Assembly (NCBI RefSeq): GCF_018310535.1 | Contig: NZ_CP074102.1 | Location: forward strand, 5,766,001-5,830,000 | Direction: 5' to 3' | Source: Streptomyces mirabilis | Lineage (GTDB): Bacteria > Actinomycetota > Actinomycetes > Streptomycetales > Streptomycetaceae | Length of the DNA: 64,000 bases | Part shown: in pieces, positions 1 to 41,740 of the stretch | Layout: every line of letters begins with the position of its first letter | How positions within the stretch are numbered: position 1 is the stretch's first letter | Notes under the pieces: generated by a model | What the model was told of the DNA's origin: nothing | What the model saw: the letters and a program-made list of their open reading frames with translations, nothing else | Database searches by the model: none | Program-made: the position numbers and the translations under genes

Positions 1-1241
1 TCGCCATGGAGGGCGACCCGCAGCGCAACCTCGCCACGTTCGTCACCACCTGGATGGAGCCGGAGGCGCAACGGATCATCGCCGAGAATCTCCACCGCAA
101 TTTCATCGACCATGCGGAGTACCCGATTTCCGCCGAGATCGAGCAGCGCTGCGTGCGCATGCTCGCCGACCTCTTCAACGCGCCGGGCAGGACAACCGGA
201 TGTCGGACCCAGGGCTCGTCCGAGGCGATCATGCTCGGCGCGCTGTCGCTGAAGTGGAAGTGGCGGGAGCGCCGCCAGGCGGCCAACCTGTCGGCCGACC
301 GGCCCAACCTGGTCTTCGGCGGGGACGTCCACGTCGTGTGGGAGAAGTTCTGCCGCTACTTCGACGTCGAGCCGCGGATCGTGCCGCTGGCCGAGGGCAA
401 GTACACGATCGGCCCGGAGGACGTGGAGCCCCACCTCGACGAGAACACGATCGGCGTCGTCGCCGTCCTCGGCACCACGTTCACCGGCCACAAGGACGAC
501 GTCGTCGGGATCGACAAGCTCCTGCGGGACGTCCGCAAGGAGCGGGACCTCGACATCCCGATCCACGTCGACGGAGCCAGCGGCGCATTCGTGTGGCCCT
601 TCCTCTACCCGGACTCGAAATGGGACTTCCGGCTCGAGCAGGTCCGTTCGATCAACGTCTCGGGACACAAGTACGGCCTGGTCTACCCCGGCATCGGCTG
701 GCTGGTCTTCCGCGAGGAGTCCGACCTGCCCAAGGACCTCGTGTTCCACGAGAACTACTTGGGCAAGACCGACGCGACGTTCACGCTGAACTTCTCTACC
801 GGCGCGTCGATGGTGCTCGCGCAGTACTACAACTTCGTCCGGCTCGGTCGCCAGGGCTACACCTACGTCATGAAGATGTTGCAGGAGAACGCCCACGTGT
901 TGGCGGACAACCTGCGTAGCAGCGGCCGCTTCGAAGTGATCGGGAGCGACCTCGAGCAGCTGCCGCTGGTCGCTTTCCGTCTCGTCGGCAAGCACGCCTA
1001 CGATGAGTCCGACGTCGCCTGGCAACTTTCGGCCGAGCGCGGCTGGATGGTGCCGGCGTACACGCTCCCGCCCAACGCGGAGCGGGTGAAGATCATGCGT
1101 GCCCTGGTCAAGGAGACCCTGAGCCGCGAGCAGATCGATCGCCTGAGTCAGGACATTTCCGACGCGTGTCGCACTTTGGACGACAAGGGTGCGACCCATG
1201 GGAGCGAGCGGGCCCAGGTCAAGCGCGGCACCGGCTACTGA
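1..1241 (+). CDS. gadB: Glutamate decarboxylase, 5'-truncated by window edge
   Basis: PLP-dependent group II decarboxylase that converts L-glutamate to GABA and CO2, using a cytoplasmic proton. The frame is already open at base 3. The ATG at base 6 aligns with the interior of the family (E. coli GadB LDGNARQNLATF region), so it is probably not the start and several dozen N-terminal residues lie outside the window. The PLP lysine is in SGHKYGL (AAG at 669-671), preceded by HVDGASGAF, whose Asp contacts the PLP pyridine. NENYLG-type and RLGRQGYT blocks also match the family. The E. coli-type C-terminal HKHT tail is absent. The next large gene downstream encodes a permease fusion, which suggests glutamate/GABA exchange, but co-transcription is doubtful because a strong hairpin lies between them at 1759-1792. 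Confidence 0.93.
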   Translation, partial: AMEGDPQRNLATFVTTWMEPEAQRIIAENLHRNFIDHAEYPISAEIEQRCVRMLADLFNAPGRTTGCRTQGSSEAIMLGALSLKWKWRERRQAANLSADRPNLVFGGDVHVVWEKFCRYFDVEPRIVPLAEGKYTIGPEDVEPHLDENTIGVVAVLGTTFTGHKDDVVGIDKLLRDVRKERDLDIPIHVDGASGAFVWPFLYPDSKWDFRLEQVRSINVSGHKYGLVYPGIGWLVFREESDLPKDLVFHENYLGKTDATFTLNFSTGASMVLAQYYNFVRLGRQGYTYVMKMLQENAHVLADNLRSSGRFEVIGSDLEQLPLVAFRLVGKHAYDESDVAWQLSAERGWMVPAYTLPPNAERVKIMRALVKETLSREQIDRLSQDISDACRTLDDKGATHGSERAQVKRGTGY

Positions 1242-1432
1242 CGCCTCCGCCCCCCGGTTGCACACGCCTGCTCGCTCTGAGGGCGTCTCCACCGCGAACC
1301 CTGCCTCCGGTAGATCAGCTGCGCGCGCCAGATACGTGCCAGATCGAACGGTCAGCCACGGTCAGCTGAGGAGCACAGCGGCGTCCACACGTTCGTGACC
1401 ACCGTCGCAGCGCACAGGCAGGATGAGCTGGG

Positions 1433-1753
1433 GTGACGGCCGAGGTGGCGCTGGTTCCGGGGACATCCAGCGCTGACATCAGCAACCACGGACAGCCGCG
1501 GCACTGGGCGGCTGTAGAACGACACCCGTGCGCGCAGCTGGGCCCAGCCAAGGTCGAGTTAGAACGAACTCCTGAAGCGGTGGTCGGCAGCGGCTGCACC
1601 AGCCTGCTTCCTGAGGGCGTGGCGGGGGTGTGGGTGGCTTCCTGCCCCCAGATGGACACCAGCATCCAGATCGGCCCGACGGGCAAGAAGCTCCTGCCGC
1701 TGACGGTCAAGAACGCCGCACCGGCCCCCGCGGGGAGCGGTCACGCGCACTGA
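1433..1753 (+). CDS. Hypothetical protein, 106 aa
   Basis: Unrecognised 106-residue protein starting at GTG 1433, with a weak purine-rich stretch (cagga, 1419-1423) about 9 nt upstream. The composition looks coding: mixed hydrophobic and polar residues, two Cys and a VAGVWVASCP stretch. It has no signal peptide or clear membrane segment. A perfect 15-bp hairpin begins 6 nt after its stop, which supports a real transcription unit ending here. A shadow ORF on the minus strand is less convincing. The gene could also be a fragment of a larger family, and no function is assigned. Confidence 0.45.
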   Translation: MTAEVALVPGTSSADISNHGQPRHWAAVERHPCAQLGPAKVELERTPEAVVGSGCTSLLPEGVAGVWVASCPQMDTSIQIGPTGKKLLPLTVKNAAPAPAGSGHAH

Positions 1754-1758
1754 GGTGA

Positions 1759-1792
1759 GCGAGGGCCTCGATCGGGTGATCGAGGCCCTCGC
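1759..1792 (+). terminator. Strong hairpin terminator
   Basis: Perfect 15-bp inverted repeat (1759-1773 with 1778-1792) and a 4-nt loop, 6 nt after the stop of the 106-aa gene. There is no T tract, as is common for Streptomyces terminators. It would insulate the permease fusion gene from upstream transcription. Confidence 0.75.
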
Positions 1793-1820
1793 GGAGCCCA
1801 GAGGCGCCTCGGACATCCAT

Positions 1821-1851
1821 TCGGTGGTGGTGGACTTCCACTCGGTGGTGG
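1821..1851. repeat. Short direct repeat upstream of the permease fusion
   Basis: The 10-mer tcggtggtgg occurs at 1821-1830 and 1842-1851, 21 bp apart (two helical turns), within 40 bp of the proposed start of the permease fusion gene. This spacing would suit a regulator bound twice on one DNA face, but chance or slippage is possible. Confidence 0.35.
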
Positions 1852-1862
1852 AGCGGGTTTGA

Positions 1863-4568
1863 GTGCGGTACGGGTCATTCTGCTGTCCCTGCGCTGTTGC
1901 GGAGGGGAGTGGCCCGGCGTTGGAATCAAGTGTGAGGCACTTTGGCGGCGCCGAGCCTGTCGACCGCCCCGCTCCCGGGACGGGGTCCGGCCGGAAAGGG
2001 CTCAAGAACGACGCCCTGGGCATGTTCTCCTCGGTGGCCATGGGTCTTGCCTCCACCGGCCCGGCGTACAGCCTGGCCGCCACGCTGGGCATCATCGTGG
2101 CCGGGGTCGGACTGCAGGCCCCGATCGTCACCATGCTGGCGTTCATCCCGATGCTGCTGGTCGCGTACGCCTACCGGGAACTCAACGCGAGCAACGCCGA
2201 CTGCGGGACCACCTTCACCTGGGCCACCCGCGCCTTCGGACCGCGCACCGGCTGGATGGGCGGTTGGGGCCTCATCGTCGCCAACATCATCGTCATGGCG
2301 AGCCTCGCCGAGGTCGCCGCCACCTACGGCTTCCGGCTGGTGGGCCTGGACGGACTGGCGGAGAACCGGCTGTGGACCACCGTGGCGGGCATCGCCTGGA
2401 TCGGCGCGCTGACCGTGATCTGCTACGTCGGCATCGAGTTCTCGGCGGCTGTCCAGCGCTGGCTGCTGTGCCTGGAAGTGGTGATGCTGATCCTGTTCGC
2501 CGTCGCCGCACTGGTCAGGGTCTACACGAGCCCTCCCGCGACGGCGATCCACGTTTCCGCCTCCTGGTTCAACCCGTTCGAGGTGCCCTCGGCAACGGCC
2601 CTGACCTCGGGCATCCTCGCGGGGGTCTTCATCTACTGGGGCTGGGACACCTCATTCGCGGTCAACGAGGAAACCGTCGACAGCACGTGCGTCCCCGGGC
2701 GCGCCGCGGTCATGTCCACCGTGCTGCTCCTGATCTTGTACGGGCTGGTGTCCACTTCGGCGCAGGCGTTCGCGGGAGTCGGCGCCTCGGGCATCGGGCT
2801 CGGCAACACGCACAACTCGGACAATGTGTTCTCCGGACTGGGCGACGCCGTGTTCGGGAGCGACGGCACGGGGCTGCTCCTGTCGAGACTGCTGATCCTG
2901 ATGGTGCTGACCTCGGCGTTGGCCTCCGCCGAGACCACCATCCTGCCCCTGGCCAGGACCGTCTTCTCCATGGCGGTACACAAGGCCGTCCCTGCCCGGT
3001 TCGCCCGGGTCCACCGCAGGTTTCTCACCCCGACCTGGGGAACCGTAGGCATGGGCGCGGTGTCGATCGCCTTGCTGGTCCTGTTGAAGTCGTTCAGCCA
3101 GAACGTCCTGGCCGACTCGATCGACTCGGTCGGTCTCGCGATCGCATTCCAGTACGGACTGACCGGCTTCGCCTGCGTCTGGTACCACCGCAAGGTCCTC
3201 ACCCGCAGTGCCAGAGACCTGGTCTTCAAGGGCGTGTTGCCGGGGCTCGGCGGGATGATCATGCTCCTGTTGTTCCTCTACGCCACCTTCGTCGTCTACG
3301 CGGACCCCAGATACGGCACGACCAGCGTCGACCTGCCGCTGATCGGCAGGACGGGCGGGGTCACCGTCCTGGGCCTGGGCGCCCTGCTGGTCGGTCTCCT
3401 GCTGATGCCGCTGGTCACCCGTGGCCATGCCGTGGCCCTCAAACTCCAGCGGAGCCTGCTTCCGGGCCGCCTGCCGTCGTACGCCGCCGTTGACGCGGCG
3501 AGCCGCTACGTGCCCGCCGACAGCGGGTCCGGGGTGGGCGGCGACTGGTACGACGTCATCCCCCTGTCGGGCACCCGGGTCGGCCTGGTCGTCGGGGACG
3601 TGCTGGGTCACGGCCTGCGCGCCGCGGCCACCATGGGCCGCTTGCGCACGGGTGTGCGCGTCCTGGCCCGGCTGGACCTGAGCCCGGACGAGCTCCTGTC
3701 CCGCCTGGACGACCTGGTCGAGCAGACCGCGCACGAGCGCGGAGCCGGCCAAGGCCCGGGCAACCTGAGGCCGCAGGCCGACGAGGCCCTGGGCGTGACC
3801 TGCCTGTACGCGGTGTACGACCCCGTCTCGGGGAAGTGCAGTCTGGCGCGGGCCGGGGAGTCGGTGCTGGTGGTCGTCGAACCGCACACGGGTGTCGTCG
3901 ACCATCCGGAGCTGCCCCCCGGACCGCCGCTGGGAATCGGTGGCCTGCCCTACCAGAGCACGGATCTGGAGCTCCCGCAGGGCAGTCTCGTCGCCCTCTT
4001 CACGGGCGGCCTCCTCCAAGCGGCCGACGGCCGTGACGTCGGGCTCGCGCAGCTGTCCCAGATCCTCGCCGACCACCGAGCGTCCCTCGAAAAGCTGTGC
4101 GACCGGGCGGTGGCCGCCCTGCTGCCCGGGGCCGTGGACGAGGACGCGACGCTGCTCATCGCCCGCACACGCCTGCTCGACCGGAACCAGTTCACCCAGT
4201 GGGAACTTCCCCCGGACCCGGCGGCCGTGGCCACCATCCGCACCGCCGTCAGCAAGCAGCTCCGCGACTGGGGGCTGGAAGAGCTGACGTTCGCCAGCGA
4301 GCTCATCGTCAGCGAACTGGTCACCAACGCCATCCGCTATGTCGGCGGCCCGATCCAGGTACGCCTTATCCGGGACCGGAACCTGATCTGCGAAGTCTCC
4401 GACACCGGCCACACCACGCCCAATCTGCGGCACGCCGCGAACGACGACGAGGGAGGCCGGGGTCTGTTCATCATCGCCCAGATGACCCACCACTGGGGCA
4501 CGCGCTACACACCCACCGGCAAGACGATCTGGACCGAGCAGGACCTGCCGACGGCGGACGGCCAGTAG
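1863..4568 (+). CDS. APC-family amino acid permease fused to SpoIIE phosphatase and GHKL kinase domain
   Basis: Three-part membrane protein. Residues about 45-510 form an APC-superfamily permease with about 12 hydrophobic segments and family blocks such as STGPAYSLAATLG and GTTFTW. Residues about 520-765 form a PP2C-like SpoIIE/RsbU phosphatase with the metal-binding GGDWYD (559-564) and VVGDVLGHG (Asp579). Residues about 780-895 form a GHKL ATPase of the RsbW anti-sigma type, with N-box SELVTNAIRY (Asn822), DTG (Asp847) and GGRGL (864-868). Phosphatase and kinase of this kind normally act on anti-sigma-factor antagonists, so the fusion suggests substrate or pH sensing linked to stress-sigma control (inference). 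Numbering is from GTG 1863. GTG 1932, preceded by ggaatcaa, gives an N-terminus closer to that of typical permeases and may be the true start. Next to glutamate decarboxylase, a Glu/GABA substrate is plausible but unproven. Confidence 0.88.
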   Translation: MRYGSFCCPCAVAEGSGPALESSVRHFGGAEPVDRPAPGTGSGRKGLKNDALGMFSSVAMGLASTGPAYSLAATLGIIVAGVGLQAPIVTMLAFIPMLLVAYAYRELNASNADCGTTFTWATRAFGPRTGWMGGWGLIVANIIVMASLAEVAATYGFRLVGLDGLAENRLWTTVAGIAWIGALTVICYVGIEFSAAVQRWLLCLEVVMLILFAVAALVRVYTSPPATAIHVSASWFNPFEVPSATALTSGILAGVFIYWGWDTSFAVNEETVDSTCVPGRAAVMSTVLLLILYGLVSTSAQAFAGVGASGIGLGNTHNSDNVFSGLGDAVFGSDGTGLLLSRLLILMVLTSALASAETTILPLARTVFSMAVHKAVPARFARVHRRFLTPTWGTVGMGAVSIALLVLLKSFSQNVLADSIDSVGLAIAFQYGLTGFACVWYHRKVLTRSARDLVFKGVLPGLGGMIMLLLFLYATFVVYADPRYGTTSVDLPLIGRTGGVTVLGLGALLVGLLLMPLVTRGHAVALKLQRSLLPGRLPSYAAVDAASRYVPADSGSGVGGDWYDVIPLSGTRVGLVVGDVLGHGLRAAATMGRLRTGVRVLARLDLSPDELLSRLDDLVEQTAHERGAGQGPGNLRPQADEALGVTCLYAVYDPVSGKCSLARAGESVLVVVEPHTGVVDHPELPPGPPLGIGGLPYQSTDLELPQGSLVALFTGGLLQAADGRDVGLAQLSQILADHRASLEKLCDRAVAALLPGAVDEDATLLIARTRLLDRNQFTQWELPPDPAAVATIRTAVSKQLRDWGLEELTFASELIVSELVTNAIRYVGGPIQVRLIRDRNLICEVSDTGHTTPNLRHAANDDEGGRGLFIIAQMTHHWGTRYTPTGKTIWTEQDLPTADGQ

Positions 4569-5844: not shown

Positions 5845-5934
5845 GTACTGATGGCGGACTACGCGGTGATGGCGGACTACGTGGTGACGGCGAACTACGC
5901 GGTGATCACGGATTACGCGGTGATCACGGACTAC
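5845..5934. repeat. 18-bp tandem repeat array overlapping the terD stop codon
   Basis: Five degenerate 18-bp units (5845-5862, 5863-5880, 5881-5898, 5899-5916, 5917-5934; consensus gcggtgatggcggactac). A sixth related unit is inside the terD coding end (about 5935-5950). Read on the minus strand, most units repeat a TAG or TAA in the same phase as the terD stop. The array probably arose by slippage duplication of the gene's 3' end. Confidence 0.9.
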
Positions 5935-6515
5935 TTGCTGACGGCGAAGCGCATCAGGGCGTGCTCGTCACCCTGCTTGATCTTCCCCGTCACATTGATG
6001 ACCTCGAGCTTCCAGCTGCCGTCGACACGAACGGCCTTGGCCACGGCGCACCCGTTGTCCTGGGTGAGCAGGCTCGGCCAGATGTCGGCGACCTGCTGAG
6101 TGGTGCCGCCGGTCGCGTCGTACACCTTGAAGCTGATGTTGCGGGCCTTCTGGAAGGAGCTGCCCTTCTTGAAGGCGGCGGCGATGAACACGATCGTCGT
6201 GATGTTGGACGGTATCCGGGCGAACTCGACCGTCAACGTCTCGTCGTCGCCCTCCCCGCGCCCGGTCTGGTTGTCACCGCTGTGGACCAGGGAACCGTTG
6301 CCCATGGGGTCGAGCGAGTCGAGGCCCGCCAGGCGCACCGGGTCCGTGCCCTGCATCGCGATGGCGATCAGGTCCAGGTCGGTGCCGGTCTTGCGGCGGA
6401 GTACGCCCATCACTCCACCGCTGCTGCCCGCGGTGGGATCCCAGGACACTCCGATGGACAGATGGGTGACTCCGTCCAGATCCGCCGGGCCGTCTTCTTT
6501 GGTGAGCGTAATCAT
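5931..6515 (-). CDS. terD: TerD-family stress protein
   Basis: 194-residue cytoplasmic TerD/CABP-type protein of the tellurite-resistance/stress family, which binds calcium. Family marks: N-terminal MITLTKEDGPADLDG, IGVSWDP, the DLDLIAIA acidic strand, the HSGDNQTGRGEGDDE Ca-binding region, and the C-terminal FAVSK. The ATG at 6515 is chosen because this N-terminus is canonical and agagga lies about 10 nt upstream. The ORF upstream of it has no family similarity. Streptomyces carry many TerD paralogues, several tied to development or metal and oxidative stress. This one stands alone on the minus strand. Its 3' end runs into an 18-bp tandem repeat array. Confidence 0.93.
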   Translation of the reverse strand: MITLTKEDGPADLDGVTHLSIGVSWDPTAGSSGGVMGVLRRKTGTDLDLIAIAMQGTDPVRLAGLDSLDPMGNGSLVHSGDNQTGRGEGDDETLTVEFARIPSNITTIVFIAAAFKKGSSFQKARNISFKVYDATGGTTQQVADIWPSLLTQDNGCAVAKAVRVDGSWKLEVINVTGKIKQGDEHALMRFAVSK

Positions 6516-6884
6516 GCGTGGATCATCCTCTTGGAGACGGGACTGCGACAGGCAAAGTGTGCATGGAGTTCCTGGTGTTCCCTCGGCAGGGGTCCCTTCA
6601 TAAGCGGACAAGGGGACACATGAGGCACTGATCGCCGACCAGAGTCGTGTGATCACTGCTGGTTGTGGGGCGGTGCGGTGGCAGGGCGTATTCCAGAGGG
6701 AGTTGGCGAACCGCTACCAGGCCCAGGGCGGTTGGGGCTCGGTGCGGGCGTGCACGTGTGTGTCTACCGGCCTCCGAGGCACGGCAGACCTGGCGGAACG
6801 GCGCGACCGCCAGGAGTTTCGACGGGGGCGCAACCGGCCTCAGGGGCGTGCATCCAGATGGTGCCCTGACGCGTCTACATCGGT
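6516..6884. other. Intergenic region between divergent terD and the repeat membrane protein
   Basis: 369 bp containing the promoters of both divergent genes. ORFs here have atypical composition and no Shine-Dalgarno sites, so none is called. No clear terminator, repeat or RNA structure was found. Confidence 0.5.
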
Positions 6885-37203: not shown

Positions 37204-37276
37204 GGGGCTATAGCTCAGTTGGTAGAGCGCCTGCATGGCATGCAGGAGGTCAGGAGTTCAATTCTCCTTAGCTCCA
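37204..37276 (+). tRNA. tRNA-Ala (GGC)
   Basis: 73-nt cloverleaf: acceptor ggggcta / tagctcc (one G-U) with discriminator A, D arm with gctcagttggtagagc, anticodon stem cctgc/gcagg with loop ATGGCAT (anticodon GGC, reading GCC), and T arm aggagttcaattctcct. CCA is not encoded. Identical to the copy at 41668. Confidence 0.97.
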
Positions 37277-41667: not shown

Positions 41668-41740
41668 GGGGCTATAGCTCAGTTGGTAGAGCGCCTGCAT
41701 GGCATGCAGGAGGTCAGGAGTTCAATTCTCCTTAGCTCCA
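41668..41740 (+). tRNA. tRNA-Ala (GGC), second copy
   Basis: 73 nt, identical to 37204-37276. The identity extends only 1 nt upstream and 2 nt downstream, so the copies share the tRNA rather than a longer duplication. Anticodon GGC (GCC codons). Confidence 0.97.

What the first reader, a model, noticed from the sequence alone, without database searches (positions are those of the whole stretch)
1..4568. Amino-acid permease fused to a SpoIIE phosphatase and an anti-sigma-like kinase, next to glutamate decarboxylase
One ORF carries a 12-segment APC permease, a PP2C/SpoIIE phosphatase with intact metal motifs (GGDWYD, Asp579) and an RsbW-like GHKL ATPase (N-box Asn822, GGRGL). In known partner-switching systems the phosphatase and kinase are separate proteins with opposite effects on one antagonist. 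Here both are in one chain attached to a transporter, so substrate flux or pH could set the balance. The neighbouring decarboxylase suggests glutamate/GABA chemistry. To my knowledge this link between transport and sigma control is undescribed.
Basis: partly seen in the sequence, partly recalled or inferred. Interest (0 to 1): 0.78.

Follow-up and report, generated by a model that had tools for sequence, protein, structure and literature searches.

The report
Permease fused to degenerate phosphatase and kinase
A Streptomyces protein joins an amino-acid-transporter-like membrane domain to an anti-sigma-type kinase through a phosphatase domain that has lost key metal-binding residues, which suggests a membrane sensor that signals by its kinase; the decarboxylase gene beside it looks like a chance neighbour.

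Summary
The ORF is real: GTG 1932-4568, 878 aa, APC permease + SpoIIE (PP2C) + HATPase. It belongs to a conserved family, apparently of single origin, in three genus groups of the Streptomyces family; a 72% paralogue sits in the same genome. (1) The phosphatase is not intact: two predicted metal ligands are changed in the window protein (D715 to G, D760 to E), as are H666 and P669. Of 193 scorable fused proteins, 29 keep all five scored positions; of 79 SpoIIE proteins without an APC permease, 75 keep D715 and D760; at least 5 SSS-transporter fusions are intact. Kinase boxes are nearly invariant. (2) Glutamate decarboxylase is adjacent in 1 of 110 related loci, the window's own, and a strong stem-loop lies between the genes. 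SpoIIE+HATPase in one chain is ordinary (17 other places in this genome; Rv1364c), and SSS-transporter versions in Streptomyces were reported in a 2021 review. Best reading: a transporter-like sensor whose last membrane helix drives an anti-sigma-type kinase through a pseudophosphatase linker. Activity, ligand and targets are untested.

The parts
1932..4568 (+). APC permease-SpoIIE-HATPase fusion gene, 878 aa, likely GTG start
   Evidence: Pfam; start by script and relatives' length; open frame conserved
2016..3311 (+). APC permease domain (AA_permease_2, residues 52-483), LeuT-type fold
3357..3458 (+). Predicted continuous helix joining the last membrane helix to the phosphatase (residues 499-532); the fusion joint
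   Evidence: AlphaFold2 helix 476-509 in 878 numbering; joint compared with separate permeases and GAF-type controls
3405..4172 (+). SpoIIE/PP2C domain, metal site degraded
3858..3869 (+). AGHPPP motif lost: H666 to E, P669 to L
4005..4007 (+). Predicted metal-ligand Asp of TDG replaced by Gly (residue 715)
4140..4142 (+). First Asp of DDxT replaced by Glu (residue 760)
4206..4532 (+). HATPase_c_2 (RsbW/GHKL-type kinase) domain, motifs intact
1759..1792 (+). 15-bp perfect stem-loop between decarboxylase and fusion, possible transcription boundary (no T run)
   Evidence: read; stretch folds at -41.8 kcal/mol, z -5.6; not called by the T-run scan
1..1241 (+). Glutamate decarboxylase gene, 5' end outside the window; neighbour only
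   Evidence: TIGR01788 539.7 bits against cut-off 380.4; adjacency not conserved

Best explanation
It is a transporter-derived membrane sensor. The APC domain binds (and may still carry) an amino-acid-like ligand. Its last membrane helix runs on as one helix into the phosphatase domain, at the place where relatives have the last helix of a GAF domain. In the window's clade the phosphatase has lost its metal site and serves as a relay or docking body, and the output is the RsbW-type kinase, which would phosphorylate or hold a STAS antagonist, or bind a sigma factor, according to the state of the permease. In the sister group, where some members keep the metal site, the protein may still be bifunctional. 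Shown here: architecture, a tree that fits one fusion, loss of ligands, conservation of the kinase. Inferred: ligand sensing, direction of signalling, kinase targets, loss of phosphatase activity.
For: In the permease tree (FastTree) 69 fused and 35 separate rows need 2 changes, best read as one fusion and one later split. Of 197 fused proteins, 4 are truncated at the sites; of the other 193, 29 keep all five scored positions, 136 lack D760, and 28 keep D760 but change another (25 D579 to E, 2 D579 to N, 1 Gly to Asp). Controls: of 79 SpoIIE proteins without an APC permease, D715 is kept in 76, D760 in 78 (one gap), both in 75. In a scan of columns conserved in 50 controls, 11 of 66 phosphatase columns and 0 of 37 kinase columns are changed in the window's clade (Fisher p 0.007, columns taken as independent); in the sister group 7 of 66 and 0 of 37 (p 0.048). 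D760 changes 2 times on the tree (161 rows), D715 18 times with 13 residue states (163 rows), as expected once a site is free. Nonsynonymous change in phosphatase over kinase: 2.04 in this clade, 1.21 in the sister group, 1.00 in controls. Kinase boxes near invariant. Continuous joining helix.
Against: No biochemical data. D760 is Glu in the window protein, which might still bind a metal, and D579 and the GGDWYD Asp are kept in the window's clade. By a simple dN/dS (overstated in high-GC genomes) the clade's phosphatase stands at 0.45, close to the controls' phosphatase at 0.42; the shifted ratio to the kinase comes mostly from a slower kinase (0.27 against 0.45 in controls), so general decay of the domain is not shown. 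Of the 11 changed columns, 6 are changed in the sister group too and need not be catalytic. P0066 sits in the window's clade with all five positions kept. Ligand and partner are unknown; no gene cluster that recurs in more than 4 of 26 loci gives a partner, and clusters were not searched for STAS domains. The 197 lean to sequences near the two queries.
Confidence: 0.45

Rival explanations
1. Bifunctional switch: phosphatase and kinase both work and the permease sets the balance.
For: 29 of 193 scorable fused proteins keep all five scored positions, 28 of them in the sister group; Rv1364c has both activities in one chain (PMC9138534); phosphatase dN/dS is close to that of controls.
Against: The window protein has G for D715 and E for D760, and H666 and P669 changed. 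136 of 193 lack D760.
Confidence: 0.15
2. The signalling runs the other way: the C-terminal domains bind a partner and control transport, as a regulatory tail of a working amino-acid transporter.
For: The permease fold is complete; of 178 columns conserved in 108 separate permeases, 17 are changed in the window's clade by the measure used and the rest are not; transporters with regulatory tails are common (recalled).
Against: The 17 changed columns include D141 to N, A66 to G, V265 to F, T356 to A and Y430 to Q in most of the clade, which would fit altered or lost transport; the kinase domain is the slowest-changing part in the clade.
Confidence: 0.2
3. A fusion that is decaying and has no present role.
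For: Repeated loss of phosphatase residues; found in a minority of genomes (29 of 394 in the family sample).
Against: No stop inside the listed matches, median dN/dS below 0.5 in all three domains, kinase boxes near invariant, 120 of the 120 best protein clusters listed carry permease and SpoIIE, 115 of them the kinase domain too.
Confidence: 0.1
4. A glutamate/GABA acid-resistance unit in which decarboxylase and permease act together.
For: The neighbouring gene is a true glutamate decarboxylase; GadC shares the fold (Foldseek rank 42).
Against: Decarboxylase near 1 of 110 loci; a profile search of solved structures lists CAT4, CAT1 and GkApcT but not GadC; strong stem-loop between the genes.
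Confidence: 0.03

Closest known systems
Rv1364c of Mycobacterium tuberculosis (PAS-PP2C-kinase-STAS)
   Same: PP2C and RsbW-type kinase in one chain in the same order; best sequence and Foldseek match for the C-terminal half
   Different: PAS input and own STAS domain (PMC9138534); TDG and NDD kept in the aligned chain
SSS transporters with GAF, PP2C_SIG and HATPase_c in Actinobacteria (PMC7918813, section 5.1.1 and Fig. 6 legend, passages read)
   Different: SSS (SLC5) transporter with further sequence between; TDG and DD kept in 5 of 5, by reading
CbrA (SSS transporter-histidine kinase) and KsAmt5 (ammonium transporter-histidine kinase)
   Same: Transporter and kinase in one chain (PMC7918813; PMC10433425; passages read)
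   Different: Two-component histidine kinases, other transporter families
PAS/GAF-SpoIIE-HATPase proteins of Streptomyces
   Same: The C-terminal module is 41-57% identical in 17 other places of this genome, 45% or more in 14 of them
   Different: PAS, GAF or Cache inputs in the six examined; metal ligands kept in nearly all controls
Separate APC permeases of Streptomycetaceae (about 500 aa)
   Same: 59-73% identical to the permease domain; the fusion arises from within this group in the tree
   Different: No signalling domain; 5 of 67 loci have a SpoIIE gene directly downstream

Membership tests
SpoIIE/RsbU-type PP2C phosphatases | SpoIIE domain by profile | tested here: met
   PF07228 144.7 bits, cut-off 25
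SpoIIE/RsbU-type PP2C phosphatases | Complete set of metal-binding Asp | tested here: not met
   D715 is G and D760 is E in the window; positions by alignment to 3ke6 and 5mqh; SpoIIE putative ligands D628, D746, D795 from PMC5468089
SpoIIE/RsbU-type PP2C phosphatases | Phosphatase activity | not testable with these tools
   needs purified protein
RsbW-type GHKL kinases | N, G1 and G2 boxes | tested here: met
   All in the window. Fused rows with a letter there: N822 191 of 192, D847 190 of 191, G849 189 of 191, G864 179 of 190, G867 190 of 190; HATPase_c_2 over cut-off
RsbW-type GHKL kinases | Acts on a STAS antagonist or sigma factor | not testable with these tools
   no partner found; neighbours not searched for STAS domains
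APC superfamily permeases | Profile match and LeuT-type fold | tested here: met
APC superfamily permeases | Amino-acid transport | not testable with these tools
   17 of 178 conserved columns changed in the clade
GadC/GAD acid-resistance system | Permease gene linked to glutamate decarboxylase in relatives | tested here: not met
   1 of 110 loci, the window's own
GadC/GAD acid-resistance system | Permease closest to GadC | tested here: inconclusive
   GadC not among 10 profile matches at E 0.001; shares the fold
Transporter-signalling fusions | Transporter and signalling domains in one conserved chain | tested here: met
   29 of 394 family genomes by open frame; tree fits one origin

The most novel reading that the evidence does not exclude
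An amino-acid transporter has been turned into a receptor: core residues of its transport path (D141 in the third membrane helix among them) and the phosphatase metal site were both lost after the fusion in the window's clade, leaving a membrane-bound anti-sigma-type kinase gated by a transporter fold through a pseudophosphatase relay. I know of no partner-switching regulator of that kind, within the searches named here.
Probability: 0.3. Interest if true: 0.75.

Novelty: new variant of a known kind. Interest (0 to 1): 0.5.

Why it matters
This genome alone has more than 60 stretches that match the SpoIIE or kinase part, and the inputs of such proteins are largely unknown (recalled). Here the input module is a whole transporter fold, and the family holds a natural series from intact to lost phosphatase sites with the kinase kept. 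That series makes it possible to ask which half of the module carries the output, and whether a transporter can drive partner switching through its last helix.

Tried and rejected
Frameshift or assembly join: rejected, the fusion recurs in many genomes with open frames. Conserved operon: none; among 26 loci and six genes either side, the only clusters in more than four loci were SpoIIE-like genes at scattered places (12 loci) and one gene that marks a shared chromosomal region (5 loci). 'Separate permeases are usually paired with a phosphatase gene': suggested by the first loci (L051-L053, L056, L133) but 5 of 67 in the larger set, so at most a weak tendency. 'Any transporter fusion loses the phosphatase': rejected, 5 of 5 SSS fusions keep the motifs. 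PADLOC: no match. Rfam in the window: two tRNAs only. Literature: the listings show no paper on an APC-SpoIIE fusion; the library holds only openly licensed PMC papers, so absence from print is not shown. sought comparators. Databases already annotate some members as 'amino acid transporter/anti-sigma regulatory factor'. VIA-align rows are filled by the permease, so the C-terminal half rests on Foldseek and sequence matches; no absence from that listing is used as evidence.
Full report

The module is common, the permease on it is not. In this genome 17 other places match both the phosphatase and the kinase part in one stretch. The six examined by Pfam carry PAS, GAF or Cache inputs. Rv1364c of M. 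tuberculosis has both activities in one chain (PMC9138534, passages read). A second full-length copy, 72% identical, lies at G000:C1:1636570-1639209.

Distribution and origin. Of 150 Streptomyces genomes, 9 have the fusion, counted as an open frame of at least 850 aa around a permease match of at least 71% identity (the eight other than the window's were checked by gene calls). Of 394 genomes of the family, 29 do by the same measure, in 3 of 17 genus groups (one more, G726, is cut by a contig end; not each was checked by a gene call). One protein bears the name Saccharothrix sp. ST-888, outside that family. In a phylum sample of 396 genomes, the only matches in so long a frame were the window's own two. 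Separate permeases of about 500 aa, 59-73% identical, occur in the same family, and more distant ones in other actinobacteria. A tree of 69 fused and 35 separate permease parts needs 2 changes of state, read as one fusion and one later split in S. lilacinus, where the two parts overlap by 4 bases. At the joint the tail of the separate permease after 'LGALLxGxxLM' is replaced by 'TRxHxxALxLQRSLLP', the stretch that follows the GAF-type helix in other SpoIIE-HATPase proteins; the model shows one helix from the last membrane segment into the phosphatase.

The phosphatase site is degraded. SpoIIE's putative metal ligands are D628, D746 and D795 and the carbonyl of G629 (PMC5468089, passages read). 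Aligned with Rv1364c and SpoIIE, the window protein keeps D579 but has G at 715 (TDG) and E at 760 (DDxT). Five positions were scored in 197 fused proteins; 4 are truncated. Of 193, 29 keep all five, 136 lack D760 (V or E in 134 of them), and 28 keep D760 but have another change, 25 of them D579 to E. Of 79 SpoIIE proteins without an APC permease, 76 keep D715, 78 keep D760 (one gap), and 75 keep both. These 79 come from the fetched loci and include the separate neighbours of L051, L052, L053, L056 and L133, all intact. A scan of the columns conserved in 50 SpoIIE-HATPase controls finds, in the window's clade, 11 of 66 phosphatase columns and 0 of 37 kinase columns changed; in the sister group 7 of 66 and 0 of 37 (a first count with another gap rule gave 100 conserved columns). 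D715, D760, H666, P669 and D616 are changed only in the window's clade; the other six are changed in both and need not be catalytic. On a tree built from the permease part, D760 changes twice, D715 18 times and D579 4 times. Nonsynonymous change, phosphatase over kinase, is 2.04 in the window's clade, 1.21 in the sister group and 1.00 in controls (14, 14 and 50 coding sequences). Against a simple story of decay, the clade's phosphatase dN/dS (0.45) is close to that of the controls (0.42); it is the kinase that is slower (0.27 against 0.45). Kinase boxes are near invariant: N822 in 191 of 192, G867 in 190 of 190, the weakest being G864 in 179 of 190. P0066 is an exception: it sits in the window's clade but keeps all five positions, while its H666 is changed.

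The permease has changed too. Of 178 columns conserved in 108 separate permeases, 17 are changed in the window's clade and 6 of these in the sister group: D141 is N in 100 of 136, A66 is G in 101, V265 is F in 98, T356 is A in 102 and Y430 is Q in 108. Their placing in membrane helices 1, 3, 6, 8 and 10 is my reading of the alignment and the model. Whether transport is lost, or only specificity changed, cannot be told.

The decarboxylase is a bystander. tblastn finds it in 1 of 110 loci, the window's own; those loci include 67 separate permeases and 30 other fusions, a few of them the same place fetched twice. The permease profile finds CAT4, CAT1 and GkApcT among solved structures, not GadC. 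A 15-bp perfect stem lies at 1759-1792 between the genes (-41.8 kcal/mol, z -5.6 for the 61-base stretch). It lacks a T run, so the terminator scan does not list it.

Comparison with what is known. A 2021 review reports SSS transporters with HATPase_c, GAF and PP2C_SIG domains in Actinobacteria, Streptomyces included (PMC7918813, passages read). CbrA and KsAmt5 are known transporter-kinase fusions of the two-component kind (PMC7918813, PMC10433425, passages read). The present family is thus a new variant: an APC permease instead of SSS, joined by its last helix, with the phosphatase losing its site. Databases already give some members names such as 'amino acid transporter/anti-sigma regulatory factor'. 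The listings of seven literature searches showed no paper on it, in a library of openly licensed papers only.

Verdict. Real, conserved and moderately interesting. The best-supported reading is a transporter-derived sensor with a kinase output and a pseudophosphatase relay in the window's clade; output, ligand and loss of phosphatase activity remain to be tested.

Noticed in passing
L098:2-2149 (-): Yinghuangia seranimata ORF of 716 aa (runs off the stretch) with 11 hydrophobic segments, by eye like a major-facilitator transporter, followed by a SpoIIE domain: perhaps a third transporter type joined to SpoIIE.
   Followed up: partly
L303-L307: SSS transporter-SpoIIE-HATPase fusions of 1193-1202 aa in five Streptomyces genomes, metal motifs intact by reading.
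   Followed up: yes
L010:11192-12040 (-): Open frame with membrane segments and, by eye, the start of a PP2C domain just upstream of the paralogue, possibly a remnant of another phosphatase gene.
   Followed up: no
L207, L209, L215, L246, L249: Separate permeases with a SpoIIE gene 102-189 bases downstream on the same strand; the phosphatases of the two groups differ in input domains (PAS or GAF, in the three examined), so the pairing may have arisen more than once.
   Followed up: partly
window 37204-37276 and 41668-41740: Two tRNA-Ala genes with the same anticodon GGC about 4.4 kb apart.
   Followed up: no
window 5931-6656 (-): TerD-domain gene downstream of the fusion.
   Followed up: no
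window 1433-1753 (+): Open frame of 106 aa between decarboxylase and fusion; not examined further.
   Followed up: no
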